Source: Pyropia yezoensis
Taxonomy: Eukaryota; Rhodophyta; Bangiophyceae; Bangiales; Bangiaceae
Length of the DNA: 64,000 bases
NCBI GenBank assembly: GCA_009829735.1
Contig: CM020619.1
Location: forward strand, 2,114,590 to 2,178,589
Direction of reading: 5' to 3'
Made by a program: the position numbers and the translations under genes. Shown one piece after another: positions 18,514-36,716 of this stretch. Each line of letters opens with the position of its first letter. The stretch's first letter is position 1. The notes beneath the pieces are model-generated. The model was given only the letters and a program-made list of their open reading frames with translations, was not told where the DNA came from and made no database searches.

Positions 18514-18575
18514 GGGGCGGTTCCCCTAGAGCCTCCCCCAATGCGTCCAATGATGGGGGGGGGCCGAAGAGGATA

Positions 18576-19891
18576 TTGCGCCGCCCTCGAACGAATAAGC
18601 CTGCATTATTGGCACTCCCTAAGGGGGTGAAACGGGAAAACGTCATTTGCGCGGTCATGCCTTCATCCAGATATCAGCTGGCTGTACAACTGTTTGCTAC
18701 TGAAGGGTTAGAACATGCATTGCATGCTGTGTTGGACACCGGAAGCGGGCCTTCTCTGATTCGAAGTTCTTTGCTCCCTAAGGGATTGAGGCTCCAGCCC
18801 CTAGGGGAGCTGGAGAATATACTGTACTTCGACTTGAATGGGGGGTGGCTTCCCATTCGAGGAACTGTGCGCTTAGGTATACAAGTGAGAGACCAAGTTT
18901 CCTACGTTTGCTTTGGGGTAATCGATAATATGGCGGTGCCCGTCATATTAGGTAACTCCTTCGGAGATACCGAAGTGAAAACCATCTCCTGTGAGGACCA
19001 GACTGTCACCCTCCAGACAGGGATGGTCGCCCCCATCCTTCGGGATATGGAGGACGCGGAACCGGGTCCCACTAAGTGGAGCCCCGTATGCGCTTGTCCT
19101 AAGGTCAAGACCGCCAAGCTCAGTTTGTGTCACAAGCTGAAGCTCAAGCCTGGGGTTATCTCCCATGTGAAAGTGAGAGGGCAGTTCCCGGGCCACTGGA
19201 TTATTTCCGGTCAGCCCCGTCTCGCCCACAAGTACGGTGTTCACGTGGCTAAGGGCCCCGCGGAACTTAACCGTGATGCCCCATTCACCATACAAGTGAT
19301 GAATCCCACCCCACGCATGGTCCGTCTCCCCGTGGGGGCGGTGGTGGCTTCTATCTCTGCTTACGAAGGACCGGTGATGAGCGTTTCCCAAGAGGAGATG
19401 CAGAAGTTGAGTGAAGGCCCTACGGCCCGGATGGGTGATACCCACTCTGAGGTGGACCTCGGAAAGGTTCCTAACGCCCTACGCGGTCGGCTCTTGGAGC
19501 TGGTGGAGAAATACTAATCCCTATGGGATGGTACCCTTGGGCTTATCAAGAATACCGTGCACCGCATACGCCTAAACCCCGGGGCAACCCCGGTACGGCA
19601 ACACCCCTATAAGGCGGGGCACAAGAACCGCCAGCTGGAAGGGGAGCAGGTGGAACGGATGAAGAAGCTGAAAGTAATAAAACCCGCCGAAGGCGAGTGG
19701 GCTAGTCCTATTGTGATCGTGCCTAAACCGGACGGCACGCCCCGTTTCTGCATTGACTACCGGCGGTTGAACCTGGTAACGGTGAAGGACGCGTATCCTA
19801 TCCCAAGGATGGATGAATGCTTGGACTCCCTAGGGGAGGCTAGGGTCTTTAGCACCCTAGACTGTAACGCTGGATATTGGCAAATTCCCAT
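18576..19891 (+). pseudogene. element 1 pol: protease and truncated reverse transcriptase
   Basis: The aspartic protease has the active site AVLDTGSGPSLI near residue 52. The linker to reverse transcriptase follows, broken by a TAA at 19,515. The N-terminal reverse-transcriptase part retains VPKPDGTPRFCIDYRRLN and motif A FSTLDCNAGYWQIPIA with its catalytic Asp. The sequence then jumps at about 19,892 straight into integrase, so the YxDD palm motif, thumb and RNase H are deleted. This copy could move only with help in trans. Confidence 0.85.
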
Positions 19892-20994
19892 TGCCCACTA
19901 TGCTCCTGGTAATGTGTGACCGCTTCACCAAGTTGGTGAGGGCCGTCCCACTGTCGGACACAACTGCCCTTGGGGTAGCATCGGCTTTCATTGACTATTG
20001 GGTGGCTGCCTATCGCATCCCAGATTCTACACTCACGGACAACGGACCTCAGTTCGCTGCCGTGTATTTTCAGGGAGTTATGGGGCTCCTTGGGATCGCC
20101 ACGAGCTTCACGACCCTTTATCACCCACAGACCAATGGTCAAGTGGAATATTATAACAAGACGATTATGCGACAGCTACGGACGTACTCGTCCGAGCACC
20201 CACGGGAATGGGATCGCTATGTGTCCCTACTGACGACTGCATATAATATGCAGATACATTCGAGCACTGGGGTTGCCCCACTGACCTTCGTGAGCCCTCG
20301 GCGATTGGAGGCCTAGAATATTGAGCGTTTACCTAAGGTACGCTCTGTGGAAACGGAGGAACCTGACGCCGATTCGGCGGTGGTTCAATACGTGAAAGAG
20401 CTACGCAATCTAATCCCAAGGGTTAGGAAGAATTTGGATAAGGCCCAACTGGCCTACAAGCGTGTCTATGACGCGGGTATCCAAAAAGATAATGAGGCTA
20501 TGTCTCAAGGGGATTGGGTTTATGTGAAATCCTATGCTAAGGGGCGGACTAAGATGTCGTCTAAGGCAAAGGGACCGTTCATGGTGCTACGCACTGACGG
20601 TCAACGGTTTCTTATTGAAACCCCTACGGGAGAGCAGACCCAGAGTAGTGATAATGTCACGCGCGCTCCCCCGCCTAGGGCAGGGGATCCTGTATGGAAA
20701 CGGGCGCGGGAAGCCCGTGACGCCTTCAATGAATTTCCTGAGGAGGCCTCGGGGAAGGATGTGCTTGAGCAGATTGTCGGCCACCAATGGGTGGAAGACG
20801 ACAACGGGAAACCCGACTTGAACTTCCGAGTCCGTTGGTTTGGCCACGGACCCGAAGGGGACACTTGGCACCCCAAGAAGGGGGTACCACGAGCGGCTCT
20901 GCTGAAGTATGCCAGGAAGCACAAGCTCCCCATCGGGGGGCGGGACCAAGGGTCCCGACTGTTCCCCCTCGGGTGGATCGAAGAAGAAGGATAA
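19892..20994 (+). pseudogene. element 1 integrase core and chromodomain
   Basis: The frame begins inside the integrase core, just past its first catalytic Asp, and retains LTDNGPQFA and HPQTNGQVEYYN, the second Asp and the Glu. It ends with a chromodomain-like module (KPDLNFRVRWFGHGPEGDTW). A TAG at 20,314-20,316 interrupts it. The zinc-binding segment and the first catalytic Asp were lost with the deletion. The stop codon at 20,992 lies only about 80 bp from the end of the converging antisense ORF. Confidence 0.85.
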
Positions 20995-21076: not shown

Positions 21077-21934
21077 TTAGTACCCCCGGTGCCCATAAGG
21101 CTGGGCCCCATCATGGTACCGAGGGCCTTGCCCTCGGCCACCGTATGCGGCCTCGGCCGCGCCTCGAAGAGACAAACTCGGGATCTGCACCATGATGTCC
21201 ATGTTAGCTCTCCCGAGTTCTCGGTCCAGGCGCTCGGAAAGCGCCGACTGAGATAGCAATGGCAATGCCACCGGCGGGATATCCCGCCAGTCCCGACGAG
21301 CGGTGACAATCGCCGCAATGTCGTTAGCCAGGCCTGTATAGGCCCGACACAGCCCCATCACAAGAGAGTCTTCAACTGCTTCCCCAAGGGATGAGGGGGG
21401 CGGATCGAAGACCCGCCCCAATGCCGCTATGGTAGTACCCGGGATAGGTCGAGGCATTGCCAATGGCGGACCGCCCCAACGGAAGGGAGCTACTGGCTCA
21501 GGAACCGTTGCCCGTCGTCCGCTAGGCGACCGAATCTCCTCACTGGGGGGGTAGTTCCCCCGAGCGGACGTTCCAAAGGACCGTCCAGAAGAAGACGCGC
21601 CTTGACCACGGCTCCCCTTAGGAGATTTCGGCTGCATAGACGGGCCATACCGCTCCAGTCCAGACCCAGGGAGACTAGGCCCCTCTTCCTCCAGGCGGGG
21701 TTCGGGATTGGATACCCGCGTAGCGGCTGTCAACCCCGGTGGGTAAGGCAGCTCCTCGTGACCCAGCCCCTCTTCCAAGAAGAGAATCCCCTCGGCGGTC
21801 AACGACCGCGCGCACCGGACCAGCGCCCGAGTACGAAGAGGAAGACCCAAGAAGGAAGGCAAAGCCTTGTGATGGACATCCTCAATGAGGAGGAGGAGTG
21901 CCCGGAAGTATGCCGCAGATTCAGGGTTACCCTG
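21077..21934 (-). CDS. element 1 antisense ORF (aORF), C-terminal half
   Basis: A minus-strand frame ends at the stop at 21,077, tail-to-tail with pol. Its 5' end is cut at 21,934 by element 3. The remaining N-terminal half is at 29,389-30,332. The segment ending GLGHEELPYPPG matches GLGIGDYPYAPG of the element 4 aORF, and the rest is proline/serine-rich then helical. There is no known domain. The two halves are in frame with each other when element 3 and one CCCTG copy are set aside, for about 598 codons in total. Confidence 0.78.
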   Translation of the reverse strand, partial: QGNPESAAYFRALLLLIEDVHHKALPSFLGLPLRTRALVRCARSLTAEGILFLEEGLGHEELPYPPGLTAATRVSNPEPRLEEEGPSLPGSGLERYGPSMQPKSPKGSRGQGASSSGRSFGTSARGNYPPSEEIRSPSGRRATVPEPVAPFRWGGPPLAMPRPIPGTTIAALGRVFDPPPSSLGEAVEDSLVMGLCRAYTGLANDIAAIVTARRDWRDIPPVALPLLSQSALSERLDRELGRANMDIMVQIPSLSLRGAAEAAYGGRGQGPRYHDGAQPYGHRGY

Positions 21935-22781
21935 TGTGAGGAACCACCCACACTTGGGCAGCCCTCAACGTACTCGTGATGGTGTCAGCGACCCGTGCCA
22001 GCCAATAGGGCGACAGGGTGCGGGGAAGAGGATGGAGGTGGTGACGGTGGTGGGTCTGGGGAAGAGGACGGCGCGACGTCGGTGGTGATCGAGAGGGTTC
22101 AAAGGGTGAAGGTCGTCTTTGGTCTGTGTCTGTGGTTGCCCTTCCGGTCTCCCCCGGTGGCGCCGACACTCACGCACTATATACTCGCGTCGGGGCACCC
22201 GAGGTGCCCCAAAGCATGCATTTCCCCGTCGCTCCACCGGTAGGCACAAAACGGCCCAAAAACAAAGCATGGCTCTCAGAACAAAGCATGGGCGGGCGTG
22301 CGCACTAAAGGAGTGCAGCCCCAGTTTGCCCCAAACGAAGGGGTCCGGCGTGCGGCGCCTAGGGCGCCGCCCCAGCCGGCTCCAGACGCCAGTCGGCCCG
22401 AAGGTCCGAGAGGCGTGTAAGCACGATTCGATCGAGTCGGCCGAATCGGCCAGCCGGCTAGCCAGTCACATCGCTGCAATGCTGCAGCGAGGACATTTTA
22501 ACGGACTCGCCAGCTGTGGCAGATGTGGCTCGTCATGGGTGCTGACGGTGGCGCCTTTCGACAGGCCATGATGGGCTGTCGATGGCTGCTGTCGTGCGGC
22601 CGGCAGACACCGTGAGACAGCGGCTGACTCATCTTGCGTCTGGAAGGTACACCGCGTCATGCCCCACAATACAAGGAGTTGATCCATGTTGCCAGGAGTT
22701 GATTCGGCAGGATCTGTAAGGAGGGGTCCCAGATATTATCCCTTAAGTATTAGGCATGGGATTAGGAGGGAAATCCTTACA
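21935..22781 (-). repeat. element 3 3' LTR (left)
   Basis: An 847-bp direct repeat of 28,542-29,388. It contains the perfect inverted repeat GGGGCACCCGAGGTGCCCC at 22,192-22,210, a TATATA box (minus strand, 22,178-22,183) and three CAAAGCATG motifs at 22,210, 22,263 and 22,282. Confidence 0.95.
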
Positions 22782-22791
22782 CCTCCCCCCC

Positions 22792-25700
22792 TTAGGACGT
22801 GCGTCGAAGGAAGGCGTCGAGAACTTCAGGTGCGTTGTCGAGGTCTTGCGTGGTTAGCCAGGTGTTCTCACTGACATCGCAGCCTTTCCACTTGACCAGG
22901 TACTGCAGTCGTCCACGTCGTTTTCGTGACCGAATAATGGAGTCCACTTCGTACTCAACCGATCCGTCCGGAAATGATACCGGAGCTGGAGCGGGAGGAA
23001 GTCGACCATGCGGATCAGCGTTGTACGGCTTGAGTAGACTGGCGTGAAAGGCGTTGTGCACCTTTCGATCAAGGACTGCTTGAGGCAGATCCAGACGGAA
23101 CGTAATATCATTGATGTTTTCAGTGACTCGGTATGGTCCCGAAAACTTGGGCATCAACTTGCGAGCGCCCTGGAAGGCGTCCGGCATAAGGTTCTTGGTG
23201 CTCAGGAGCACGAGGTCGTCGACAGCGATCGTACATGGTCGGCGTCGACGGTTAGCGTACGCCGAGCGCGTCTCATTGGCCTTCTTGATAGCGGTAATGG
23301 CAGTCTCCTGAGCTTTTTGCAGACTGCTTAGCCAATCTGAGACTGCTGGTAGTTTCGATTCCTTGCTCTCGACGATGTCGACAGGTACTGTCCTTGGTTC
23401 AAAGCCGTAGTTCAGGCAGAATGGGGAGTACGTCGTGACCGCATTGGGTCACCGGTTGTAAGCTACTTCTGCAGCAACAAGGAAGAGGTCCCAATCACCC
23501 TGATGATGGTTCACGAAGTTTCGCAGGATTTCTTCAATCTTCTTGTTCATGATCTCGGTTTTTCCGTCCGTCTGGGGATGATAGGCTGAAGATGCCTTGA
23601 TCTTGACCTTGAGAATTTCGGTTAGCGACTGCCAGAAGTTGGAGAAGAAGATACGGTCTCGGTCCCAGACGACGTCGGATGGTAGCCCGTGATGACGGTA
23701 GACGTGATCATGGTAGAGTTGCGCTACGACTGGTGCAGTACAGTCGGGCTTCATTGGCGCTAGTCGAATCATCTTCGACAGTCTGTCCACAATGACGTAA
23801 ATGCCATTGTGGCCCCTTTGGGTCAGTGGAAGAGGGGTGATAAAGTCCATGGAGACACTTGCCCATCGTTGGTTCAGTGGATCTAGTGGTTTGAGGTGAC
23901 CCAGAGGTGAATGGGTGCCAGCTTTGTTCCGCTGACACAAATCACATGATTGTACGTATCTTTGGATGTCCTTCCGCATTGTCTTCCAGTAGTATTTGGA
24001 AGCAATAGCGTTGGTGGTTTTCTTAACATCCATATGTCCTTGGCTTGGGATGTCGTGGTAGTCATGGAGTAGTCTTTGGCGTAGAGTACCAACGGGGACG
24101 CACGTACGGTCACCTCGTTTCAACAACCTTATGTGAAGCCGGTAGGGAGATACCGGGTCTTTGACTAGGTCGGCAAACTCGGGATCCGCGTTGTACTCTT
24201 GGTCTAGGGTGGCAAGGTCTTGATCACTTTGGCTTATGGTCATGAGGTTGTTGATTTCAGTTTTCTTGGGTAGGCTTTCGATGGTCTTGGTTAGCACGCG
24301 ACTAAGGAGATCTTGATTGGGAGCGTGCTTATCGGGGGCGTCTTGTGGTTGCCTCGAAAGAGCATCAGCTACGGGGTTGGAAGTGCCCTTGATGGGGATG
24401 ATCTTGAAATCGAATTGCTCCAACAGCTCTAGCCACTTGACTTGGCGGTCGTTGAGCTTCTCTTGGGTTTTCAAGTACCTTAGGGACTCATGGTCGGTGT
24501 GCACCTCGAACGACCTTCCATGGAGGTAGCAGCGCCAGTGTCGAATGGCTTGTACAGCTGCGAGCAGTTCGCGCTCACGGATACTGTAGCGCTGTTCGTG
24601 GATGTTCAGCGTCAATGAGAAGTAGGCCACTGGGCGTCGTCCTTTTCCGTCATCTTGTTCAAGGACAGCGCCAACAGCATACCCACTGGCATCTGTGGAG
24701 ACGAAGATTGGGTACCTCTTGTCGAATGGCCTCAGTACTGGTGCACTCGTCGTCAGGGTTTGTAGTTGCTCAAAAGCCTTCTGGGCGTCAGAGTTCCATT
24801 CGAAGTCGACGTTTCCAGTAAGCCTTTTGAGGGGTGCAGCCACGGATGCCATTCCCTTAATAAATCGACGATAGAAAGTGACCATGCCGATGAAAGATTG
24901 CACATCTTTTTTGCTCTGTGGCGTTGCCCATGATCGAATGGCTTGGACCTTGTAGTCCTCCATAGAGAAGCCTTCGTTGGAAATGACATGGCCGAGGTAG
25001 TCCACAGTTGTTCGCGCAAATTGGCATTTGCTGAGTTTGGCGTAGAGATTATGCTCTCGCAGCTTGTCCAGGGCTTGCCTTAGGTGCTTTAGATGATCTT
25101 CATAAGATTCACTGTAGACCAGGATGTCGTCGAGGTAGACGCAGATAAACTCGTAGAGATAGGGTCGGAAGACGTCATTCATTAGGTTCATGAAGACCGC
25201 GCGGGCATTTGTTAGCCCAAAGGGTAGCACCGTAAATTCGTAGAACCCGTATTTTGTTCGGAACGCCGTCAGTGGGATAGTGTCAGGGTCAAGCCGGATC
25301 TGGTGGTAACCTGATCGGAGGTCGATCTTCGTGAAGTACTTGGCCTTTCGCAGTTGGTCGAAGATGTCGTCAATTCTTGGTAAGGGATATGCGTTCTTGA
25401 TAGTGGCTTTGTTCAATGCTCGATAATCGATGAACATTCGCCAGCCACCGTCCTTCTTTGCGGCAAAGAGTACAGAAGAGCCCCACGGTGACGCACTTGG
25501 TTGGATGAACCCCTTTCGTATGAGGGTTGCAAGTTGTGTCTTGAGTTCATCGAGTTCCCATTCAGATAGGCGATAAATGCCACTGCGACGTGGTTGAGCG
25601 TCCTCCGTAAGCTTGACGCTAAACTTGTGACTGCGTTCAGGACGAAGTCCATCGGGAAGCTCTTCCGGGAAGACGTCGGCGTACTCGTTGAGAATCTCTT

Positions 25701-26283
25701 GGATGTCATTCTTGTCTTCAGCTTCTCCCATTTTGATCGCATTGATGTCAAAGGTGCTGGAAGGATCTTCGGATTGCAGGTAAATGGCGAAGACAGGAAC
25801 TTTTTGAATAAGGTCCTTGGCGAGGCGTTGGCTACTAATCAGGCCATGGGGTTTCTTGAGGGAGGCAGTGATGGAGATGTTCTTTTGGTTAAACTTGAAG
25901 GAGATCTTGTTCTTCTTGTTGTTGATTTTGGCGTCCTTGTCGTCACGCCATTTCTTTCCGAGGATAATGTCGTACGCACTTAGGTCGCATACAGCAAACC
26001 GAAGACGTTCTTGGTATGGGCCGATGTGAATCTCTAAGGGTTCCATGGTCTCTGCGAGGACGTGGGAGCGACCATCGGGCATGTTAGCCGCGAAGTCCGT
26101 TTCTTTCGTGGTCACATTCAGGGTATTCACGAGGCGCCTTGATACGACGTTAATGGGAGATCCGTCGTCAAACAGCACCTTAACAAGATGTCCATTGACA
26201 GAGGCAGTAGAAAGCAGAAGCCCGAGACGCGGGCCTTCAAATGGTGACGACATGTTTTCAGGAACCGAAGAAGCGTCTGGCAC
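22792..26283 (-). pseudogene. element 3 pol: protease, reverse transcriptase, RNase H, integrase, chromodomain, one TGA
   Basis: One frame runs from about 26,283 to the stop at 22,792, broken only by a TGA at 23,446-23,448 in integrase. In order it has: a protease with LFDDGSPINVVS; reverse transcriptase with FIDYRALN, motif A KIDLRSGYHQI, LPFGLTNA and YLDDILVYS; RNase H with STDASGYAVGAVLEQ and HTDHESLRYL; the HHCC segment ending CDLCQRNK; an integrase core with SMDFITPLP, WDRDRIFFS and HPQTDGKTEIMN; and a classical chromodomain near the C-terminus with LQYLVKWKGCDVSENTW. All catalytic residues of reverse transcriptase are present. The chromodomain probably guides integration to marked chromatin. 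Confidence 0.93.
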
Positions 26284-26306
26284 CGGTTTTGATGACGGTT
26301 GCTGCT

Positions 26307-27176
26307 TCAGTTCCGCTGGCCTTTTAGGCAGTCCTTGGCCATATGTCCTTTCTCACGGCAGCGGAGGCAAAGGCCTTCACGCATACAGCGCTGACGCTCT
26401 TCAGGCGTGAGTTTCTCGACTTTGATGCTGGAGATTTCCATGGGAATGACACCCGTCGTGGATGGCCTCGCAGAAGTGCCGCCGAGGTGCGTCGAGGCAC
26501 CAGCCTTGGCAGCCTCCACGCGCAGAGCGTCAGTCATGAAAGATTCAAGATCCGAGTAGGTCTTGAGACAAAGAGCCTGCCAGATGTCCCGCTTCAAGCC
26601 TCGGGAGTAGCGGTCAATCTTCTCGGCTTCCGTGATGTCAGGGATGTCCAAGAGGACGCTCAGAAACGTCCTGTTGAACGTTCCGACGTCTTTGGTTTGG
26701 CGCCACGAGTGCAGCTTGTCTCGTGCCGCTTGTGTCTTGTTCAGTGGACTGAAGCGGCGAATTAGAGCAGAACGGAAGGATTCTCAGTTCGGGACAGCTG
26801 TAGTCTGACTGTAGACCTTCCACCAGTCGAACGCTTCGCCGTCGAGGAAGGTGCAAGCAATACTACACGCATCGTCGGGGTCACTCAGTCGCACATAGAA
26901 ATCCATATGCGAGCACCACGCTTCAACCGTCCCAGGTTTACCGGAGAAAGCCACGGGTTTGTTCGGCCTCGCGGATTTCATGCCACTAGTAGTGGCCCTG
27001 GCCTTGGCTTCGGACAGTTGCTGCTTAGCGTCGGCTAGTTCCATCTTATGAGCCTCGAGTTGTTCGCTCATTTGCGCGACAAACGCTGTAAGCTGGGTCC
27101 AGGCCTCCATAGTCGGTGCGTTCGAGCCCGAGCCCGGATTGGCCGGGTTGACACCCCCTGGGATTGGTGCATCCAT
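26307..27176 (-). pseudogene. element 3 gag with zinc knuckle, one TGA
   Basis: The ATG at 27,176 starts a frame that ends at 26,307. A single TGA at 26,781-26,783 lies where Ty3-type capsids usually have Trp (pattern W..F...L...F; here VPN-stop-ESFRSALIRRF), so it may be a TGG to TGA change. The capsid-like region precedes a zinc knuckle CLRCREKGHMAKDC at the C-terminus. Pol follows in another frame after a short gap. Confidence 0.88.
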
Positions 27177-27522
27177 GGTGTCTTGGGTTCAAGTCCGAGG
27201 CAAACAAACTTACAACCCAGATTTCACAAGACTTGCTTGGGGAGGACCCCAAGGAAGATCTCGGAGATGCGGGATAGGAGTTTGTCTGCAGCAGTAGTGG
27301 TGTACACGATTTGGATAAGTGCTGCGCTAGTTGCTGCAACGTTCCAAATGATGTACAGCACTACTTCGAGAAGCACAAGAAATTCGGTTGAAATCACACA
27401 AACGGATTATTCAGAAGCGTCCGTGCACAGGCCCGAGTCGGGTCGTGTCGGATTTCCAAGCGGGGGGATCAATGGGGGAAAATCGGGCTCCTAGGCCAGA
27501 TCCAGGGGCGTGTCAACAGGTG

Positions 27523-28302
27523 TTAATCGGTGCGGCGCGCCAGCGTGCGGTGATGATCCTTGCCACGTGTGTGCCGCTCGAAATGTTCCACCGACTCAAA
27601 TTCGCGACCGCAGGGTTCGCAACGGGGAAGGGTGTCCGGGCGGTTAATTACGTATCGTTGGCGACGGGATCCACGGTGATCACGCAGCACAGTGAGGCTG
27701 TTGCACCGCACACCGCACGGATTGCAAAGGAATTTCCGTTGCGCCCCACGGTGGCTCTTGGCAATTCGGCGTTGCTCACGCTGCTCACCCGCGCGCGCGG
27801 TGGTTGGCTTGATGTGACCAATCACCGGTGGCGGCGGGGCGGTGTAACGGCGCCCCGACTCTTGGGGGGGCAGTAACAGGCGACGGTTGACGCGGGCTGC
27901 CGTGTCCTTGGTGGCAGGGCCCTTGCCCTTGCCCGAGAGGGGGGGCTTGGGTGCGGCCCGGCCCGCTGAGGCGGGACAGACTGGGACCGCCGGGGTAGGA
28001 ATCGAGTGGGCGCCCGCCGGGGGGTTGTGTGCACTCGGGCGGGCGTGTGCCTGCGGGGAGCCGCGTGCCGACGGGGGGCCGCGTGCCGACGGGGGGCCGC
28101 GTGCCGACGGACCGTGGGCCGTGAAGGCGCCACGGGTCGTCGGGGGTGCGCGGACCGTCGGGGGTGCGCGGATCGTCGAGGGTGTGCGTACCGGGGGGGT
28201 GCCACGGGATGTGGACCCGGTATCGCGCGCCGAGGCCGCCGAGGATGTCGGGCCGGCCGCCAGTGCTGAGGAAGAGTATTCCGAATCTGATGTGGATCTC
28301 AC
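27523..28302 (-). CDS. element 3 upstream ORF: U1-type C2H2 zinc-finger protein
   Basis: A 259-codon ORF lies between the primer-binding site and gag on the coding strand. The first 110 residues are Pro/Ser/Arg-rich, with a short tandem repeat SARGPP (about residues 70-83). The C-terminal part has two zinc-finger-like units. The first is CNPCGVRCNSL, with H in RDH. The second is CEPCGREFESVEHFERHTRG, with a further His (CX2CX12HX5H, the U1/matrin spacing). These bind double-stranded RNA or DNA in other proteins. Ty3/gypsy elements normally have nothing but leader here. Capture of a host gene is likely but unproven. Confidence 0.75.
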   Translation of the reverse strand: MRSTSDSEYSSSALAAGPTSSAASARDTGSTSRGTPPVRTPSTIRAPPTVRAPPTTRGAFTAHGPSARGPPSARGPPSARGSPQAHARPSAHNPPAGAHSIPTPAVPVCPASAGRAAPKPPLSGKGKGPATKDTAARVNRRLLLPPQESGRRYTAPPPPVIGHIKPTTARAGEQREQRRIAKSHRGAQRKFLCNPCGVRCNSLTVLRDHRGSRRQRYVINRPDTLPRCEPCGREFESVEHFERHTRGKDHHRTLARRTD

Positions 28303-28520
28303 TGGGATTCAACAATCGGTTGACCAAAAGAAAAATTCCGTGAAAAAAAAACCACAAGGGTTGTGTCAGGAAATTGTTCGTTCGGTGTGATTCGTGGAAC
28401 CCGCTACGTTCGTATTACAATGCCCGTGGCAAGCCGAACGTAGGGGGCAACACGACTGCACAATCGCAGGGAGAGCCAAATCAAAAACGGAATCGCAAGT
28501 CACCGCCAGGTAGAAAAGCC

Positions 28521-28539
28521 AAACTATCTGAAGCTACCA
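28521..28539 (-). other. element 3 primer-binding site for initiator tRNA-Met
   Basis: On the minus strand TGGTAGCTTCAGATAGTTT begins two bases inside the 5' LTR end. It is exactly complementary to CCA plus the discriminator, acceptor 3' strand and part of the T arm of the tRNA encoded at 51,566-51,649. Nineteen consecutive positions match. Confidence 0.92.
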
Positions 28540-28541
28540 CA

Positions 28542-29388
28542 TGTGAGGAACCACCCACACTTGGGCAGCCCTCAACGTACTCGTGATGGTGTCAGCGACC
28601 CGTGCCAGCCAATAGGGCGACAGGGTGCGGGGAAGAGGATGGAGGTGGTGACGGTGGTGGGTCTGGGGAAGAGGACGGCGCGACGTCGGTGGTGATCGAG
28701 AGGGTTCAAAGGGTGAAGGTCGTCTTTGGTCTGTGTCTGTGGTTGCCCTTCCGGTCTCCCCCGGTGGCGCCGACACTCACGCACTATATACTCGCGTCGG
28801 GGCACCCGAGGTGCCCCAAAGCATGCATTTCCCCGTCGCTCCACCGGTAGGCACAAAACGGCCCAAAAACAAAGCATGGCTCTCAGAACAAAGCATGGGC
28901 GGGCGTGCGCACTAAAGGAGTGCAGCCCCAGTTTGCCCCAAACGAAGGGGTCCGGCGTGCGGCGCCTAGGGCGCCGCCCCAGCCGGCTCCAGACGCCAGT
29001 CGGCCCGAAGGTCCGAGAGGCGTGTAAGCACGATTCGATCGAGTCGGCCGAATCGGCCAGCCGGCTAGCCAGTCACATCGCTGCAATGCTGCAGCGAGGA
29101 CATTTTAACGGACTCGCCAGCTGTGGCAGATGTGGCTCGTCATGGGTGCTGACGGTGGCGCCTTTCGACAGGCCATGATGGGCTGTCGATGGCTGCTGTC
29201 GTGCGGCCGGCAGACACCGTGAGACAGCGGCTGACTCATCTTGCGTCTGGAAGGTACACCGCGTCATGCCCCACAATACAAGGAGTCGATCCATGTTGCC
29301 AGGAGTTGATTCGGCAGGATCTGTAAGGAGAGGTCCCAGATATTATCCCTTAAGTATTAGGCATGGGATTAGGGGGGAAATCCTTACA
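28542..29388 (-). repeat. element 3 5' LTR (right), promoter-bearing
   Basis: An 847-bp copy of 21,935-22,781. A TATATA box lies on the minus strand at 28,785-28,790. Three CAAAGCATG motifs lie upstream of it on the coding strand, at 28,817, 28,870 and 28,889. This copy should drive transcription of the zinc-finger ORF, gag and pol. Confidence 0.95.
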
Positions 29389-30332
29389 CCCTGACACAAA
29401 GTGTCAACAGGGCTCTCCTGGAGAGCGCGCAACAGGGGGATCGGGATGAGCCAAGCATGTCCGTAGTACAACCCCGAGGAAAGTAGAACATCGGCTACCT
29501 CCACTAGCCAACAGACGTTCAGGGCTGCCCTGGCCGCCGAGTCCGGACCGTGGGCCATCAATCGACTCCCCCGGACTGCAACTATGTTGCCGATACGCGC
29601 GGCCATGCCGCGTGGAACCTCATAATCGCTCCACCAAGTAGGGATGGCTGGGTACAACTTGAGACGTTCCCCATGGGAGAAGCACTCGACCTCCCGCTGC
29701 TCTGCGCAGGCGAAGATGCCATGGCGCCGACGGTGCCGATGTTCAGTCAACGCTTGGCGTAGGAAGTAACCGCGAGGACGTCGCCCAATAACCGGCAGTG
29801 GGCCCGGGTAATACGCCAAGTCAAAGACTGGCATTGACCCCGGCGGCAACGGCGGACGAGAGCAGGCGTCGTCCAGCTGCCGAGCAAGCTTCCAATCCTC
29901 CGCAAAGCAGAGCACGGGATAATCCGTCGGCGTCCCAATCGGGACCTCGTAGAGGTCCGGGTAGAGATGGCGGAACGTTGCCGACACCCCCGCCATGCGG
30001 CGCGGATCCACCAGAACCCACCGGTCGGTGACTGCGCCGGGATGTGGGTGAGGATAAGGCCGTTCCTTGTGGAAGGGGATAACTTCCCCGAAGGGGCCAG
30101 GCCCCTCTGAGTCCGCCAACGGTGGAGCAGGTACCTCGGCCGGTGAACCCGGACCGGCATCGCCCCGGCCACTCCCGGCGTCTTCCATCGGGACGTCGCT
30201 TGAAGCGGCGGGTGGCAACCCCGTGGCCGAAGGGCCACGGGGGGAAGAAGGAGCACGTGGGGACGAACCCACCCCATCGTCACCCATGGTGGCGGTGTTG
30301 TCCGGTTGCCCCGACGGGGCAGACATGTCCAA
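29389..30332 (-). CDS. element 1 antisense ORF (aORF), N-terminal half
   Basis: The ATG at 30,332 (MDMSAPSGQPDN...) opens a frame that runs cleanly into the right target duplication of element 3. After about 85 Pro/Gly/Ser-rich residues the protein becomes ordered. The segment TWWSDYEVPRGMAARIGN and the following LNVCWLVEV correspond to EWWPQVEVPYGFPALLP and ATQWLLEV of the element 4 aORF. It is encoded on the strand opposite gag and pol, reading away from the 3' LTR. Function is unknown. A promoter would have to lie at 30,333-30,726 or in the LTR antisense strand. Confidence 0.78.
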
Positions 30333-30726
30333 CCTCTCCGAAGGAGACGGGGGGGGGAAGGTGTGTGGGTGTCACCCCTACCCTTAGGGTGAGGGAAAGG
30401 GGGACGCGCGTAAGCCGGTGGTAGCGAGGAGGAGAAGGGGGGGAAAGGGAACGGTGGCCGTCCTTGCGGCTAGCACCCGTTGCCACTACCCCTCACTCCG
30501 ATCCACCCCTCTCGGGTGGGAAGGCGGCCCTCTTCTACCCCTCTGTCCCCCAACACGGGCCTGAGGAGGTTGCCGGGGAGGCCCCCTAACCCCTCGCTCC
30601 TGGCAACGCTAGGAGAGCCAGTCCCCTCACGTCCCCACCCTGTGTGGGCAGGGCCGTGGGAAGCGACGGGCCCTATCCTTGCTGTGTCCCCCACCCCTCG
30701 GGTGGTGGTTTTGAGGGGGGTAAGAG
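30333..30726. other. element 1 3' internal region and purine tract
   Basis: Non-coding DNA between the aORF start and the 3' LTR. It ends with GAGGGGGGTAAGAG, the likely plus-strand primer site. By position it would also contain the promoter of the aORF. Confidence 0.55.
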
Positions 30727-30933
30727 TGTGCGTGGGGGTGCGCGTTGCTTCCCCCTTCGAAAAAAAAAACAGACTTGCGTGTGCTTGAACACTGTCGTCC
30801 TGGTCGTGGATCCCGACGTGAACAAGCCAGGCGGTCGGAGGTTCAGTATCTGTCCGGTCTCCCCGCGTTCTTGGTGGGTTGCTTCTCTGTGTGTTATGGG
30901 TGCTAGGCGCCTAAGGTACGTAAAGCCACTACA
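30727..30933 (+). repeat. element 1 3' LTR
   Basis: 207 bp, matching the 5' LTR at 6,384-6,590. It is followed immediately by unrelated pol sequence. Confidence 0.88.
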
Positions 30934-31756
30934 CTGCCCCCCTGCGTGGGCCTGGTTCTGCCACAAAACTCTACGACCGCTTGGCCGCCTTACTGTCACC
31001 ATCTTTGTCGACCATGAACCAATGCTTTTTCTCTTTCCCGTAGTCAAGACCCTCTCAGTCCCCCTTATCCTAGGCTGGGATTTCCGGAGGCAGCATGTCA
31101 GGAGTATTCTGCCAGGAAAAGGAAAGGTGCAGTTTGACCACGGATTCATCTCACTTTTGCGGGAGCACTTGGACACCAAGGCTCGTGTAGTCAAGAGCAA
31201 GAAGGACAGTATCCCGCCTTCTACCCTGACGCTCTATAAACCAGTGCTGCTTCCTCCTCGTTCGGAAGCCAAGGTTCAAGTGACTACGCGGACAACGGGT
31301 CAATACCTGATATTCGGACGCAAGAAGTCTCTTGCGAAACACCGGTTGTATTTGGCCCATGGGCACCACCGGAAAGTAGAAAGGCACGTCCCATTCTCCG
31401 TGCTTGTCGTCAACGCGATAAGGAAGCCAATAACTCTCGCGAAGGGTACTCGAGTCGGCACGTCCGAGCCCTATCGAGGCTCTTCCCGCGCCCTGAGCAG
31501 GAAGGACCTCTTCAACGTGCAACAAGAACTAGAGTCCAACCTATCAGCCCTGGGCGTACCTCCGGAACAAGCACAAGCAACTGGCGACGTCCCAGCACCC
31601 GAAACACCTCCGCCCAAGACGCCGAATTTTAATCAAGATAATGTTCCTCCCGACCTGAAGAAGGCTCTGAAGAAGCTTCTCCAAGAATACCGGCATTTTT
31701 GCACTGGGGAGCTGGGCAAGATGGACGCCACCGTACACTGGATTCAACTTTAACCG
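30934..31756 (+). pseudogene. pol fragment (protease C-terminal part to reverse-transcriptase linker) of a related element
   Basis: The frame contains TLSVPLILGWDFRRQHVRSI, matching the post-active-site part of the protease of element 2 (ALSVPLILGMDFQKEHVKAI), and continues to the linker just before reverse transcriptase (GELGKMDATVHWIQL). The active-site DTG is absent because the left end is cut by the element 1 LTR. The right end is cut by the LTR of element 4. It is the relic of a third, related element. Confidence 0.8.
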
Positions 31757-32221
31757 TGGCAGTATTGACCCCCAGGTAGGGGGGCAACACGTGCCATGCA
31801 AGGGGCGGCAGGCCACTAGCCTGATCCGTTCCTCCCCCTGCATTTGGGTCCATATTCCCTAAGTTTGGGATAGTTAGCTTAGTAGTAAATCCAACTTGGA
31901 TTTGAGGGTTTTCTGCATTTATCGTCTTGAATTTTCGTGTGGCCCGGTGGGCAGGTGCTGGGGTGGGAGATTCTGAGTGGCGAGATTCTGAGTGGACCCT
32001 GGGGGGATAAGGGGAGGGACAGCGGGGCTTGGCCCTGCGTCCCCGTCCCGACCAAGAAACTGTTGGACCACACACCATCCTCTTGTTTGTCCGTGGGGGG
32101 TTTGCCCCACAACAGGGACAGAGTGTGTGCGACTTGCACTTCTTCCGGTTCCCCCGACACGGGAGGCAGCCCTTGCACACCGCCCCAACTTGGGTGCCGT
32201 GTGTGCATGTGGTTTTTGCCA
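31757..32221 (+). repeat. element 4 5' LTR
   Basis: Begins TGGCAGTATTGACC and ends TTTTTGCCA, with 5-bp terminal inversion TGGCA/TGCCA. It is the same as 36,029-36,493 except near the right end (GCATG against GCTTG). Confidence 0.95.
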
Positions 32222-32225
32222 CATT

Positions 32226-32242
32226 TGGTGGAGCAGCAGGGG
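32226..32242 (+). other. element 4 primer-binding site
   Basis: TGGTGGAGCAGCAGGGG starts four bases after the LTR, and is identical to the site of element 2. Confidence 0.75.
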
Positions 32243-32258
32243 AGACGATGGCCTCCTC

Positions 32259-33635
32259 ATGAGGAGGGGGGTATTCCAAGGGGCTGAACAACTTGTCGTC
32301 CCCGCATCCCTCAAGGGCAGTATCCTTGAGAGGGAGCACAACGCTCCCACGGGTGGACACCTGGGGTCTAGTAAACTGTACCAGACCCTGAGGATCAGGT
32401 ACTACTGGCCGTCCATGGTGGTGGACATCTACAGTTGGGTGGCTGCCTGTACAAGTTGTGCACAGCACCGTCTGATGGAACGGCGGCCTAGTACGGCTAT
32501 GCTATTGTTCCCGGCCAAGGAGCCCTTCGCCGCGTTGGCGATGGACATCCTTGGGCCACTGCCAGTGACCGAGGAGGGCAACCAGTACCTCCTGGTCATC
32601 TGTGACCGCTTCACGAAACTTACGCGAGCGATCCCACTGGCAGAGATCACGGCCATGTCGGTCGTGTCAGCCTTCCTAGATCACAGGGTTGCCGCGTATG
32701 GCATCCCGGATAGTACACTATCGGACAATGGACCGCAATTTGCGTCTGTACTGTTTCAGGGAGTGCTGGATATGTTGGGGGTTAAGGCAAACTATGCCAC
32801 CCCCTACCACCCACAAACTAATGGGCAGGTGGAGCGCTTCAACAAAACTATTGTTAGGCAGCTGCGCCACTATGTGAGTGAGCACGTGAAGACGTGGGAC
32901 CAATACATTTCTATTCTTACTACCGCCTACAATTCGCAGGTTCACTCATCTACCGGGGAAGTACCCCTCGCTTTTGTGACCCCCCGTCGTGTGCGGTCTA
33001 TTGCTGTGCGGCGGTCGCTCCCAGCTAGGGAGGATGGTGGCAGTACGCCTACTCCTACTGAGAGTAAGGCGGAGTTCGCTGCTAGGCTTGAAAACCTCAT
33101 CCCTAAAGTCAGGGCTGAGATGGACAAAGCACAAAAGCGCTACAAGCGTACCTTTGACAAAAAGGTGCGCAATGCTAAGCACGTCCCCGAGCAGGGTGAC
33201 TGGGTGCTGGTACACTCGCACACCCCAACTGGGGGTAAGCTGGTACTCCAGACGAAGGGGCCGTACCAGGTCCTTCGTACTGATGGGCGGCGCTTCACCA
33301 TCGAAAGTGACGATGGGGTCCGCACAGTGAACGGACATGACGTGGTCAAAGTTGCACCACCGCCTGCAGGCGACCCAGCTTGGGCGCGTGCTTTGGAAGC
33401 GTGGCGCCTCCCCTCACTGCCTGCGGCCAAACAGGGCCCGCAGGAGTACGTGTTCGATAAGTTCATCGACCACGGATGGGATGAGGACACTAACCGCCTC
33501 ATGTTGAGGGTGCGTTGGTTTGGCTACAAAGCCAAGGATGATACGTGGGAGTATGTGGAGGACCTTCCCGCTGAGAAGGTCCGGGCGTACTGTGCCCGGA
33601 ATGAGATAGACCCTAACAGCCCTCCCTCAACGTGA
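32259..33635 (+). CDS. element 4 integrase with chromodomain (pol remnant)
   Basis: An intact frame of 458 codons from an ATG at 32,259, although the frame is already open in the LTR. It shows the zinc-binding segment (H and H in HNAPTGGH, CTSC), the integrase core with AMDILGPLP, LSDNGPQFA and HPQTNGQVERFN supplying D, D and E, and a C-terminal chromodomain-like module (LMLRVRWFGYKAKDDTWEYV). No upstream pol domains remain. The ORF could still yield a free integrase if the LTR promoter is active. The start codon is a guess. Confidence 0.88.
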   Translation: MRRGVFQGAEQLVVPASLKGSILEREHNAPTGGHLGSSKLYQTLRIRYYWPSMVVDIYSWVAACTSCAQHRLMERRPSTAMLLFPAKEPFAALAMDILGPLPVTEEGNQYLLVICDRFTKLTRAIPLAEITAMSVVSAFLDHRVAAYGIPDSTLSDNGPQFASVLFQGVLDMLGVKANYATPYHPQTNGQVERFNKTIVRQLRHYVSEHVKTWDQYISILTTAYNSQVHSSTGEVPLAFVTPRRVRSIAVRRSLPAREDGGSTPTPTESKAEFAARLENLIPKVRAEMDKAQKRYKRTFDKKVRNAKHVPEQGDWVLVHSHTPTGGKLVLQTKGPYQVLRTDGRRFTIESDDGVRTVNGHDVVKVAPPPAGDPAWARALEAWRLPSLPAAKQGPQEYVFDKFIDHGWDEDTNRLMLRVRWFGYKAKDDTWEYVEDLPAEKVRAYCARNEIDPNSPPST

Positions 33636-33746
33636 GGGAAGGCCGAGCAACAGTGCCACGAGAGTGCTTCAAGTCGAAGTGGTACGCAGAGTGGCTTTTA
33701 ACTACAGCCCTAACCCTCACACACTCACAACAAAGGCAGCTGCCAA

Positions 33747-35513
33747 CTAGGCACGCATGCTAGACTCTCCCACTCCACGGCCCTCGCCCTCACGTGGAGG
33801 CGAGCGGCGAGACCCACGCCGATAACGGTCTCCACTCGTTGGAAGGGGCGGCGGCTCCAAGTCGGAACCGTCGCGCCCTTCACGGTCGCGCAAGTGGCGC
33901 CGACCGTGGCTACTCTTCTGCCTGGTCTTGCGCGCAAGTTTGCGACGCAGACGCTGGACAGACTCCGTCTCCGACGGGGTAGAGGACTCCGAAACGGAGT
34001 AAGACAACTCGTCTTCCGACACGGAGGGAGAGTGCCGCGAGTGTCGGCGACGACGGCGAGCAGGCGAGTATGCCCGGCTCGCGCGACGTTTGCCACGCCC
34101 AAGTGGGGCTGGCTGGGGCATAATAGCCCCAATGCGAGCCAACTCGGCTGTCATAAACTCCGCCACCGACTCGCAACTCGCGGTCGCCACTGCAGTACGA
34201 ACGCGCTCCTCAAGTTGAGGAGTCTCGGAACTTTGGAGGGTTTCGGTCGACGCGGCCAACCAGGTAATGGTGCGCACCAACGTGGTGATCATCATCTCTG
34301 AGGTTAGAGGCGTGGGCGGTAACACCAACTTGGGGTATACCGTCAGGAGGGTGGCCCGCAAGTTGGGGGACACCGGGGTGGATGACACCACGGCCACGCT
34401 GATCGGGATGTTCCTGTGACGCTGGAGAGGAACAGGAGGAAGCGGAGGGGCACGCCGAGGTGGCGGTACCCGGGTGTAACTGCGACCCCGACTTGGGGCC
34501 CCCGCAGTGGGTTGAGTCATATGGTCATCATAGGACGGCACGGCCATAACTATGGGCTTGTCCGGGGGTGGCGCAGTGTGGCGATCCACCCCCGGGGCAT
34601 ACGGGTAGTCCCCGATGCCCAACCCCTCTCGTAGGACCACATGGCCGTCGTGAAGTTCACGAGCGACCCACACGAACTGGCGAAGTGCGCCATCGTCCTT
34701 GGGCCCACGAGTGGGGCGGCGCAACTTGTGCTCAATGCTCTCCCACTCGATGAACTTATGGAGCCGGAGCATCTCCTCAAGTAGAGTGAGTTGTCCTGAT
34801 GAGCACCCCTCAGCAACTAGCTGAGGGGTGAGCTGTTCCAAACCTTTAATGAGCCGGAGGGGGAGATGCCAGAGCATCCCCCGCCGCTGAACACAAGACA
34901 CCCAGGTCGACATGACCTCGAGGAGCCACTGGGTGGCCAACATGGCCCACACCAGGTGATCAGGGGCAGCCGTCAACATGACGGAGCCGAAGTGGTCAAG
35001 CAACCGTGGCAGCAACGCCGGGAACCCGTAGGGGACCTCAACTTGAGGCCACCACTCGGGCTTCTTCGGATAGTACTGCTCCTTGCTGGCAGCAGACTGT
35101 TGAGGAAACTCAAGTTGAGCCGAGGTCACCAAGTAGGGACCTCGCCGGAAGTCTTTCTCCATCCGCACATCAAAGTGATGAGTGTGCGGATCGGCCTCGT
35201 GGAGGTACGGAGGGCGAGTTGCCACCGCGTCCCAAGTAAAGGTCGGCAAGTCGCCGGGACCCGGGATAGTTCCCCCGCGGTCCACCATGGCCTTGGCACG
35301 CTGAACGTCCTCAACCTCCTCATCGTCCAGGAAGGCAAACTGGTCCGTCCTGAAGCCGGCAGGGAACCCGACCCTACGGGGATACTTCTCCCGTAGGCGG
35401 TCCCATACCCGGCCCATCGCTGCGCCAAGTCGGCCACAGCGAAGAACAGTCAGCCCCTCCTCATAGAGGCCACGCGGGGTAAAACCACCGCCCCAAGGCC
35501 TCACGCGGGACAA
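33747..35513 (-). CDS. element 4 antisense ORF (aORF), intact
   Basis: 588 codons on the strand opposite integrase, ending 111 bp from the integrase stop. In the N-terminal half the motif EWWPQVEVPYGFPALLP, then APDHLVWAMLATQWLLEV and RGMLWHLPLRLIKGLEQL, form a predicted helical core shared with the aORFs of elements 1 and 2. GLGIGDYPYAPG follows, then a Pro-rich stretch, a second helical region, and an Arg/Ser-rich basic C-terminus from about residue 480, suggesting nucleic-acid binding. I cannot assign a known domain. Upstream, an overlapping minus-strand frame (from about 35,680) encodes a Gly/Pro-rich leader that may be the true N-terminus behind a frameshift. Confidence 0.8.
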   Translation of the reverse strand: MSRVRPWGGGFTPRGLYEEGLTVLRCGRLGAAMGRVWDRLREKYPRRVGFPAGFRTDQFAFLDDEEVEDVQRAKAMVDRGGTIPGPGDLPTFTWDAVATRPPYLHEADPHTHHFDVRMEKDFRRGPYLVTSAQLEFPQQSAASKEQYYPKKPEWWPQVEVPYGFPALLPRLLDHFGSVMLTAAPDHLVWAMLATQWLLEVMSTWVSCVQRRGMLWHLPLRLIKGLEQLTPQLVAEGCSSGQLTLLEEMLRLHKFIEWESIEHKLRRPTRGPKDDGALRQFVWVARELHDGHVVLREGLGIGDYPYAPGVDRHTAPPPDKPIVMAVPSYDDHMTQPTAGAPSRGRSYTRVPPPRRAPPLPPVPLQRHRNIPISVAVVSSTPVSPNLRATLLTVYPKLVLPPTPLTSEMMITTLVRTITWLAASTETLQSSETPQLEERVRTAVATASCESVAEFMTAELARIGAIMPQPAPLGRGKRRASRAYSPARRRRRHSRHSPSVSEDELSYSVSESSTPSETESVQRLRRKLARKTRQKSSHGRRHLRDREGRDGSDLEPPPLPTSGDRYRRGSRRSPPREGEGRGVGESSMRA

Positions 35514-36028
35514 CTTGTCCCGCCTCCGGGGGAGACCCCGCCGTCAACCCAAAGCCGGGTGACGCGGGAGTCCCATCCCCCGGAGCGATCGCGGAGCCCC
35601 CGCCGGAAGTCCCGGCGGGTGCTGCACCGTAGGTGGTGTCCTCCATACGCTCATCTAGAGAGTCCGTCTCCACTCCCGGGGTCGCCATGGCTCTCCCCAA
35701 GTTGGGGGGAGACGCTCTGGCTATCTCGGCACGAGACCCGCCTCGATTTGAGGGGTACTCGGATCGTGGGTATACGGGTGGCCTCCCCAGCGTGGGGCGG
35801 CCCAGTGGAAGGTGAAGGGGAGGTGGTGGTGATGGTGAAGTGTGAACTGAGGAGAGCAAGCTGCCGAGTGGGCAAGCTTGAGGAGAGGGGCGGTCAACGT
35901 GACCGCCTCCACATCCGTGTTACGTACTCGATGGGGGACAGCAAGTCGCGCCCCCAACGCCGAGACGTGCGTTTACGCACCCCCTCACAGGGCCGACCGG
36001 GTCGGTCGGAACTGAGGAGAGGGGAGTG

Positions 36029-36493
36029 TGGCAGTATTGACCCCCAGGTAGGGGGGCAACACGTGCCATGCAAGGGGCGGCAGGCCACTAGCCTGATCCG
36101 TTCCTCCCCCTGCATTTGGGTCCATATTCCCTAAGTTTGGGATAGTTAGCTTAGTAGTAAATCCAACTTGGATTTGAGGGTTTTCTGCATTTATCGTCTT
36201 GAATTTTCGTGTGGCCCGGTGGGCAGGTGCTGGGGTGGGAGATTCTGAGTGGCGAGATTCTGAGTGGACCCTGGGGGGATAAGGGGAGGGACAGCGGGGC
36301 TTGGCCCTGCGTCCCCGTCCCGACCAAGAAACTGTTGGACCACACACCATCCTCTTGTTTGTCCGTGGGGGGTTTGCCCCACAACAGGGACAGAGTGTGT
36401 GCGACTTGCACTTCTTCCGGTTCCCCCGACACGGGAGGCAGCCCTTGCACACCGCCCCAACTTGGGTGCCGTGTGTGCTTGTGGTTTTTGCCA
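36029..36493 (+). repeat. element 4 3' LTR
   Basis: A 465-bp copy of the 5' LTR, preceded by the purine tract. Confidence 0.95.
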
Positions 36494-36716
36494 CACAGCT
36501 CGAGGAGCGCCTCGGCGGGTACGTCATCTTCCTGCGGCGCATCTACCGCACGGCCGACAAGAGGTTCGACTACCTCGAGACGAAACAGATGGACCAGTTG
36601 CTGGCGAGGGAGTACGAGCGAGCAGTCCTCCTCCCCACCAACCAGCACCGCGGCACGGCCATGCGCAAGTTCCGCGCCCAGCGGGATACCTACCGCCTCA
36701 AGAACGCGGCATAGGT
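36494..36716 (+). pseudogene. unrecognised ORF tail following the element 4 LTR
   Basis: An open frame emerges from the LTR and ends at the TAG at 36,712-36,714. Its 73 or so residues are charged and probably helical (for example KRFDYLETKQMDQLLAREYE) with a basic end, so it looks like the C-terminus of a real protein cut by the element. It is not similar to the ORF start at 5,193. I recognise no family. Confidence 0.3.

What the first reader, a model, noticed from the sequence alone, without database searches (positions are those of the whole stretch)
21077..35513. A conserved antisense gene in three different Ty3/gypsy families
Elements 1 (29,389-30,332 plus 21,077-21,934), 2 (9,265-11,010) and 4 (33,747-35,513) each carry a 580-600 codon ORF on the strand opposite gag-pol, always between the chromodomain end of pol and the 3' LTR and tail-to-tail with pol. 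The products share blocks, for example WWPQVEVPYGFPALLP (element 4), TWWSDYEVPRGMAARIG (element 1) and VKLPYGALVELP (element 2), followed by an alignable helical stretch ending WLLEV/WLVEV/YLLEF. Another shared block is GLG..(D/E).PY.PG. LTRs and pol have diverged strongly, so conservation of position and protein suggests selection on a real gene of unknown function. Antisense ORFs at this place are described for some plant Tat-lineage elements (Grande, RIRE2). I know of none for an algal chromodomain element.
Basis: partly seen in the sequence, partly recalled or inferred. Interest (0 to 1): 0.88.

Follow-up and report, generated by a model that had tools for sequence, protein, structure and literature searches.

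The report
Antisense accessory gene in seaweed retrotransposons
Many families of retrotransposons in the nori seaweed carry the same extra gene written backwards behind their main genes; it is a real, selected protein of a new kind, yet whole subfamilies have multiplied without most of it, so it is probably a shared helper rather than a required part.

Summary
The window is Pyropia yezoensis. Elements 1, 2 and 4 carry homologous genes antisense to pol, tail-to-tail, before the 3' LTR. The window's copies are imperfect: element 2 has three in-frame stops, element 1 is split by element 3, element 4's frame is broken near its 5' end. Intact relatives (543-705 codons) occur in several diverged families. 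Of 16 representative loci 11 have pol nearby, all on the opposite strand. Selection is purifying (dN/dS 0.17-0.28 in the clearest pairs; 0.17-0.86 over 16 pairs). Gene and integrase trees agree in their main branches. No Pfam, PDB or PHROGs family matches; it is not the plant TRP28 antisense gene. Two results go further. Among element-1-type pol ends 25 of 48 have the gene's core within 3 kb, 17 only an N-terminal stub; in the element-2 clade 54 of 107 have the core, 13 a stub, 40 no match; several core-less copies have long open pol frames. A repeat unit of about 22 copies, without LTR or pol in the two copies read, also carries the gene. Best reading: a trans-acting or dispensable regulatory accessory protein. 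Function is inferred; transcription is untested.

The parts
33747..35543 (-). Element 4 antisense gene, 598-codon open frame (stop to stop); the start codon of close relatives lies at 35688, in another frame in this copy
35461..35688 (-). Element 4: N-terminal part of the antisense gene (begins with the Met of relatives), in another frame here
29389..30326 (-). Element 1 antisense gene, N-terminal 312 codons (with the core), up to the element 3 insertion
21077..21934 (-). Element 1 antisense gene, C-terminal part beyond the element 3 insertion
9265..11010 (+). Element 2 antisense gene (element 2 runs on the - strand); one frame throughout, with stops at 9967, 10144 and 10378 before the end at 11008
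31992..33635 (+). Element 4 pol remnant: integrase zinc-binding and core, weak chromodomain; no reverse transcriptase match in this frame
11389..15705 (-). Element 2 pol (protease, RT, RNase H, integrase; 1438 aa open)
18489..20994 (+). Element 1 pol pieces (broken)
6689..8051 (+). Probable Gag of element 1 (455-codon frame; assigned by eye and by its place; no significant Pfam match)
6375..6590 (+). Element 1 5' LTR
30718..30933 (+). Element 1 3' LTR
8052..8695 (-). Element 2 3' LTR (flank CGCAG shared with the other end)
17488..18131 (-). Element 2 5' LTR
21935..29390 (-). Element 3, a clear chromodomain element without this antisense gene, inserted in element 1's antisense gene
31756..32223 (+). 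Element 4 5' LTR
36028..36495 (+). Element 4 3' LTR, preceded by a purine-rich tract (36008-36027)

Best explanation
A clade of Ty3/gypsy elements in Pyropia yezoensis carries an accessory gene that was probably present in the common ancestor of the families compared. The gene is antisense to gag-pol, tail-to-tail with pol, and its start codon lies about 340-570 bases from the 3' LTR in the window elements. It encodes a protein of 543-705 residues with a Pro/Gly-rich N-terminus, a conserved core of about 200 residues (motifs around Q-E-F and WW..-EVP-G), a Pro/Ser-rich linker and a C-terminal part. SHOWN: homology across families, single open frame, purifying selection, fixed arrangement, main-branch agreement with integrase, and loss of the core in subfamilies that multiplied, some copies of which have long open pol frames. 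INFERRED: it is expressed from its own promoter between gene start and 3' LTR or in the LTR, as reported for maize Grande; the protein acts in trans, probably in the nucleus, to favour expression of the element or to counter its silencing, so that copies without the core can use protein made by others. My odds: real selected gene 0.95; trans-acting or dispensable rather than needed in cis 0.75; regulatory/anti-silencing role rather than a replication or particle role 0.4.
For: Single open frame of 543-705 codons in 11 copies, the other five frames of each carrying 4-24 stops, 0 of 2000 single-base shuffles open for each. dN/dS 0.17-0.28 in three moderately diverged intact pairs; family medians 0.21 (11 sequences) and 0.38 (13); frame controls on two pairs. 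Arrangement: of 16 loci 11 have pol in the stretch, all 11 opposite strand and tail-to-tail, stop-to-stop gap 80-697 bases; 5 have no pol match. Genome pairing: 42 of 48 element-1-type and 67 of 107 element-2-clade pol ends have the gene or its stub tail-to-tail within 3 kb, and no match lies in any other arrangement within 3 kb. Gene and integrase trees share their main branches. Loss: 17 of 48 and 13 of 107 stubs; 4 of the 17 and 3 of the 13 have pol frames of 1342-1343 and 1438-1442 codons with no stop in the match. Relatives in other sequence sources (P0001-P0011).
Against: No RNA, protein or localisation data were available, so transcription is untested. A basic cluster that could be a nuclear signal is present in only 4 of 12 proteins scanned. 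Structure prediction failed (mean pLDDT 40.3 and 47.4) and Foldseek on the core model gave 0 matches at E 0.001. Selection is weaker in recent pairs (L050/L051 0.86, L052/L053 0.74, L039/L041 0.59, element 4/L006 0.48) and the L052 family is near neutral (0.78). 40 of 107 element-2-clade pol ends have no gene match within 3 kb. Spread of core-less subfamilies can also mean that the protein is simply dispensable.
Confidence: 0.55

Rival explanations
1. A structural or replication accessory protein (capsid-like, nucleocapsid, chaperone or envelope-like) that works in or on the particle, merely encoded on the other strand.
For: Conserved core predicted largely helical (low-confidence model) and, in the element 4 family, a basic Ser/Arg-rich C-terminus. 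A simple hydropathy scan puts 3 of 12 proteins (L052 2.15, P0007 1.85, P0005 1.76) above the usual 1.6 mark (mark recalled).
Against: No similarity to the elements' own Gag (hhalign probability 0.14%); no significant Pfam match; subfamilies lacking the core multiplied, some copies with long open pol frames.
Confidence: 0.2
2. The antisense RNA is what matters (self-limiting dsRNA or read-through control) and the protein is secondary.
For: Tail-to-tail pol and antisense gene give complementary RNA if both are transcribed; the review PMC7264820 (parts 1 and 2 of 3 read) names this possibility for plants; core-less copies keep the upstream part and N-terminal codons.
Against: Protein-level purifying selection specific to one frame and protein similarity between families whose silent sites are near saturation.
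Confidence: 0.12
3. A degrading passenger: a captured gene still visible because copies are young, with no current use to the element.
For: Frequent loss of the core, stops in many copies, near-neutral ratio in the L052 family.
Against: dN/dS 0.17-0.28 in moderately diverged intact pairs; 116 of 116 scored element-4-type matches have no stop (116 of 4378 candidates were scored).
Confidence: 0.1
4. Spurious: an open frame produced by high G+C content opposite a sense gene.
For: The genome is G+C rich and the window holds many long chance frames.
Against: No sense frame is open there (sense-strand frames of the 11 copies carry 4-24 stops); 0 of 2000 shuffles open; frame-specific selection; homology across families.
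Confidence: 0.01

Closest known systems
Retand-lineage antisense TRP28 gene of flowering plants
   Same: Antisense ORF between pol and 3' LTR, conserved through one Ty3/gypsy lineage, function unknown, regulatory role suggested (PMC11963269, abstract and passages).
   Different: No TRP28 or other Pfam match in 13 members; host is a red alga; pol-to-3'LTR distance about 2.4 kb (element 4) and 2.7 kb (element 2) against 2.9-6.6 kb reported; Retand is described as non-chromovirus, here a weak chromodomain is seen in two of three elements.
Grande gene23 (maize) and RIRE2 antisense ORF (rice)
   Same: Antisense before the 3' LTR; for Grande own promoter upstream of the gene and nuclear protein (as told in PMC7264820; primary papers not read).
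   Different: No direct sequence comparison was made; transcript and localisation are untested here.
Antisense ORF of Boty (Botrytis cinerea)
   Same: Non-plant element with an antisense aORF, named in PMC7264820.
   Different: Not compared by sequence.
HTLV antisense genes (HBZ, APH-2)
   Same: Retroelement gene on the minus strand, nuclear protein (as told in PMC11963269).
   Different: Retroviral; no comparison made.
VANC anti-silencing proteins of VANDAL transposons (recalled, from no call)
   Same: Proposed parallel in mode of action: a transposon protein acting in trans for related copies.
   Different: DNA transposon of plants; no comparison made.

Membership tests
Ty3/gypsy LTR retrotransposon | LTR pair and pol order protease-RT-RNase H-integrase | tested here: met
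   Element 2 pol: RVP 122-205 (19.5 bits, just under its cut-off 20.7), RVT_1 497-657, RNase H 723-852, integrase 966-1137; LTR pairs
Chromovirus | Chromodomain at the end of integrase | tested here: inconclusive
   Element 4 22.5 bits and element 1 20.4 bits, below Pfam's 25.1; element 2 none at E 0.1; element 3 57.2 bits
Retand/TRP28 antisense aORF | Antisense ORF between pol and 3' LTR | tested here: met
Retand/TRP28 antisense aORF | Transposase_28 domain (PF04195) | tested here: not met
   0 families at E 0.1 for the 13 members of A1; none for P0005-P0008 at E 0.05
Retand/TRP28 antisense aORF | Own promoter and nuclear protein (Grande) | not testable with these tools
   No RNA or cell data
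Envelope-like aORF | Sense orientation downstream of pol | tested here: not met
   Antisense in all 11 loci with pol and all 109 paired pol ends
Envelope-like aORF | Transmembrane segments | tested here: inconclusive
   Hydropathy maximum 1.09-1.59 in 9 of 12 proteins, 1.76-2.15 in P0005, P0007 and L052; no dedicated predictor was run
Captured Gag copy | Similarity to the elements' Gag | tested here: not met
   hhalign probability 0.14%, E 0.42
Phage or prokaryotic gene family | Relatives in viral or prokaryotic contigs, or PHROGs | tested here: not met
   51 and 77 pattern matches, none confirmed (one scan each); PHROGs 0 for 5 proteins

The most novel reading that the evidence does not exclude
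A red-algal, lineage-wide trans-acting factor system: one ancient element-encoded protein serves a community of mobile DNA. Gene-bearing families pay for it, core-less subfamilies with intact pol live off it, and a separate non-LTR mobile unit (L052 type) has captured the gene, as would be expected of a diffusible anti-silencing or mobilising factor.
Probability: 0.2. Interest if true: 0.82.

Novelty: new variant of a known kind. Interest (0 to 1): 0.62.

Why it matters
The antisense accessory genes named in the two papers I saw are from flowering plants and a fungus, with no function shown. A protein family without recognisable relatives in the same place in a red alga points to a repeated evolutionary solution. 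The natural set of matched subfamilies, with and without the core but with closely related pol, makes the open question of what such genes do testable by counting insertions, transcripts and silencing marks of existing copies.

Tried and rejected
Gag origin of the protein: rejected. TRP28, Pfam, PDB and PHROGs membership: none significant (the two Pfam matches at E 0.25 and 0.14 and the two PDB matches at E 0.48 and 0.85 are taken as chance). Viral and prokaryotic contigs: no confirmed relative. Promoter scan of 35400-36500 uses a bacterial consensus and says nothing here. L052-type unit: no LTR or clear terminal inverted repeat by BLASTN between its ends, no Pfam match in four of its frames, so its class is open. 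Paper searches (listings only) showed no algal antisense retrotransposon gene; the library holds open-access papers only. One search found none of its terms in PMC6317226. A larger profile run timed out and was repeated smaller.

Counts and dropped rows; 16 pairs, dN/dS 0.17-0.86. One search used 14 of 18 L052-family copies (L053 dropped because my coordinates put it out of frame, L078-L080 because of stops), 11 of 20 element-1 copies (the 9 with stops counted apart: median 0.39) and 13 of 15 element-2 copies. A first pairing used only part of the gene rows (59 of 127, and about half of the 150 listed) and 86 element-2 pol ends; I repeated it with all 127 and all 150 listed gene rows, 48 of 150 listed element-1 pol matches (56% identity or more, reaching query residue 220) and 107 of 150 listed element-2 pol matches (70% or more, reaching residue 230). 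One search used 12 of the 16 loci. Search lists are capped by the tool (best candidates only; one search found 152 matches and listed 150).
Full report
WHAT THE WINDOW IS. The window is G000:C2:2114590-2178589 of a 107.5 Mb assembly. Its three large contigs (43.59, 34.33 and 29.39 Mb) equal the scaffolds of 43.6, 34.3 and 29.4 Mb given for Pyropia yezoensis in PMC7423979 (passages seen), which gives 48% repeats with LTR retrotransposons predominant. The left half of the window is a nest of LTR elements. Element 1 (+) holds element 2 (- strand, flank CGCAG on both sides) and element 3 (- strand). Element 4 in this window shows integrase, the antisense gene and LTRs; no reverse transcriptase was found in its frame.

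CHECK OF THE OBSERVATION. The three frames exist on the strand opposite pol and before the 3' LTR. The copies here are not all intact: element 2 has in-frame stops at 9967, 10144 and 10378, element 1 is interrupted by element 3, and element 4's frame lacks the N-terminal part of its relatives, which is present in another frame. Window-only BLASTP supports element 4 with element 1 (E 7e-13 and 8e-4) but not with element 2 (0.051). With intact relatives from the genome the link is firm: hhalign probability 94.3% for the element-2 clade against the element-4 family, 91.3% against the element-1 family, 98.0% for elements 1 and 4. Over six pairs the true scores are 46.8-116.8 against 11.9-22.1 for shuffled columns; the weakest pair is L059 with element 4, probability 73.1%.

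HOW WIDESPREAD. Searches of the own genome gave 116 matches for the element 4 protein, none with a stop inside (only 116 of 4378 candidates were scored), 127 for element 1 and 152 for element 2, many of the latter two with stops, many others with open frames of 600-800 codons. Five groups are separable: the element-2 clade, L059, element 4, L050/L051 and element 1. Element 3, a clear chromodomain element, has about 9 bases between its pol frame and the LTR, so no room for the gene. Public protein data gave P0001-P0003 and P0004-P0011. P0005-P0008, from two other sources, form a branch of their own beside element 1 and L050/L051, which suggests other species carry the gene; their organisms are not named. 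No relative was confirmed in one scan each of viral and prokaryotic contigs.

IS IT CODING. Eleven representative frames of 543-705 codons are open while each of their other five frames has 4-24 stops; none of 2000 single-base shuffles of each was open. Differences fall on third positions (108, 70 and 260 for L013/L022). dN/dS is 0.17, 0.25 and 0.28 for L013/L022, L030/L056 and L006/L055, and 0.17-0.86 over all 16 pairs; the highest values are L050/L051 0.86, L052/L053 0.74 and L039/L041 0.59, all low-divergence pairs, and L030/L059 0.52, a nearly saturated one. For L013/L022 and L030/L056 the other five frames give 1.16-2.26, except one reverse frame at 0.33 and 0.38 where third positions coincide and which holds 11-22 stops. 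Integrase in five comparable diverged pairs gives 0.10-0.15, in two young pairs 0.25 and 0.50; in six of the seven the antisense gene's ratio is clearly higher, in L013/L022 about equal (0.15 and 0.17). Family medians are 0.21 (element 1), 0.38 (element 2), 0.39 (element-1 copies with stops) and 0.78 (L052 family).

ARRANGEMENT AND DESCENT. Of 16 representative loci, 11 contain pol in the fetched stretch and all 11 have it on the opposite strand, tail-to-tail; 5 (L049, L052-L055) show none. Gene and integrase trees agree in their main branches: the element-2 clade, then L059, then elements 4, L050/L051 and 1; L057 pairs with L060 in both. Some joins are weak (69/72 and 74/91), forks inside the element-2 clade of the integrase tree are poorly supported, element 3 is a very long branch, and the tool warns of long branches meeting in the gene tree. 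The simplest reading is one acquisition before the families split, followed by joint descent.

LOSS OF THE CORE. Pairing of pol ends with gene matches gives, for the element-1 family, 25 of 48 with the core within 3 kb, 17 with only an N-terminal match ending at residue 78-103, and 6 with nothing within 3 kb; those 6 have a match on the expected side and strand 4.3-21.1 kb off, as nested insertion would give. For the element-2 clade 54 of 107 have the core, 13 a stub and 40 no match within 3 kb (4 of them have one on the expected side within 25 kb). In neither set does a gene match lie within 3 kb in any other arrangement. Thirteen core-less loci were read: seven of element-1 type (L081-L087), three of element-2 type (L091-L093) and three of the 40 without a match (L088-L090). 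The ten compared by BLASTN with intact relatives (L081-L083, L087-L093) keep the upstream region and about 62-78 codons and then turn into roughly 615-720 bases unrelated to the gene, up to near the pol end. The replacement segments of the two element-2 sublineages are related to each other (80% over 457 bases) but show no useful similarity to the element-1 one, so the core was probably lost at least twice. Four of the 17 element-1 stubs have pol frames of 1342-1343 codons, three of the 13 element-2 stubs 1438-1442, and L088-L090 1437-1438, all without a stop in the match. The core is therefore not needed in cis for spread.

A SECOND CARRIER. 22 nearly complete copies (84% identity or more; 15 of 22 without stops) of a shorter version exist. 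In the two copies read it lies in a repeat unit of about 5.9 kb with sharp ends and no LTR, and no pol was seen. In the trees it falls on the element-1/4/L050 side. It looks like a capture of the gene by another kind of mobile unit, of unknown class.

MECHANISM. No domain is recognised and the models are too poor for a fold. A simple scan found no zinc finger, a basic cluster in 4 of 12 proteins, and a strongly hydrophobic 19-residue stretch in 3 of 12 (L052, P0005, P0007), so membrane contact is not excluded for those. From frame-specific selection, loss in amplified subfamilies and co-descent I infer a trans-acting accessory protein, most likely one that helps the element's expression or counters its silencing, transcribed from a promoter in the 339-569 bases between its start and the 3' LTR, by analogy with Grande (told in PMC7264820). 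The analogy to VANC proteins is recalled. Structural roles, an RNA-level role and plain dispensability remain possible.

COMPARISON WITH WHAT IS KNOWN. It works like, in place and strand, the antisense aORFs of Grande, RIRE2, Retand and Boty (PMC7264820, parts 1 and 2 of 3 read; PMC11963269, abstract and passages). It is not a member of the TRP28 family by the sequence test available. I found no description of such a gene in an alga in my searches. I file it as a new variant of a known kind: a protein family without recognisable relatives, in a known genomic position, in a new host lineage, with repeated core loss. The mended counts (in place) did not change my odds.

Noticed in passing
L052, L053, L061, L063 (G000:C3 around 25777177; G000:C1 around 8162312): A repeat unit of about 5.9 kb with sharp ends, no LTR and no pol seen (two copies read), carrying a shortened relative of the antisense gene; 22 nearly complete copies of that gene in the genome.
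   Followed up: partly
L081-L087, L088-L093: Core of the antisense gene replaced by about 615-720 bases of unrelated sequence at a similar codon position in three sublineages; probably at least two independent events.
   Followed up: partly
31746-31755 and 36496-36505; 6365-6374 and 30934-30943: No matching target-site flank beside the LTR pairs of elements 4 and 1, unlike element 2 (CGCAG both sides); recombination or misplaced LTR ends are possible.
   Followed up: no
51304-54268: Inverted repeats of 405 bases, 99% complementary, 2155 bases apart, with a short direct repeat near one end: looks like a young DNA transposon with terminal inverted repeats.
   Followed up: no
37669-40986: Long frames that read like a DIRS-type reverse transcriptase and a tyrosine recombinase by eye; Pfam gave no match at E 0.001.
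   Followed up: partly
5457-5897: An element-4-type LTR in opposite orientation (88% over 306 bases), possibly a solo LTR.
   Followed up: no
37311-37718: Stretches similar (82-90%) to element 3's LTR in inverted orientation.
   Followed up: no
44934-45803, 48836-49681, 59912-60850: Host genes: ribosomal protein L30/L7e family, ferredoxin-dependent bilin reductase, HSP20.
   Followed up: no
1-4000 and 54001-60000: Very G+C-rich stretches (72-82% in 2-kb windows), the first with many short G+C-rich repeats.
   Followed up: no
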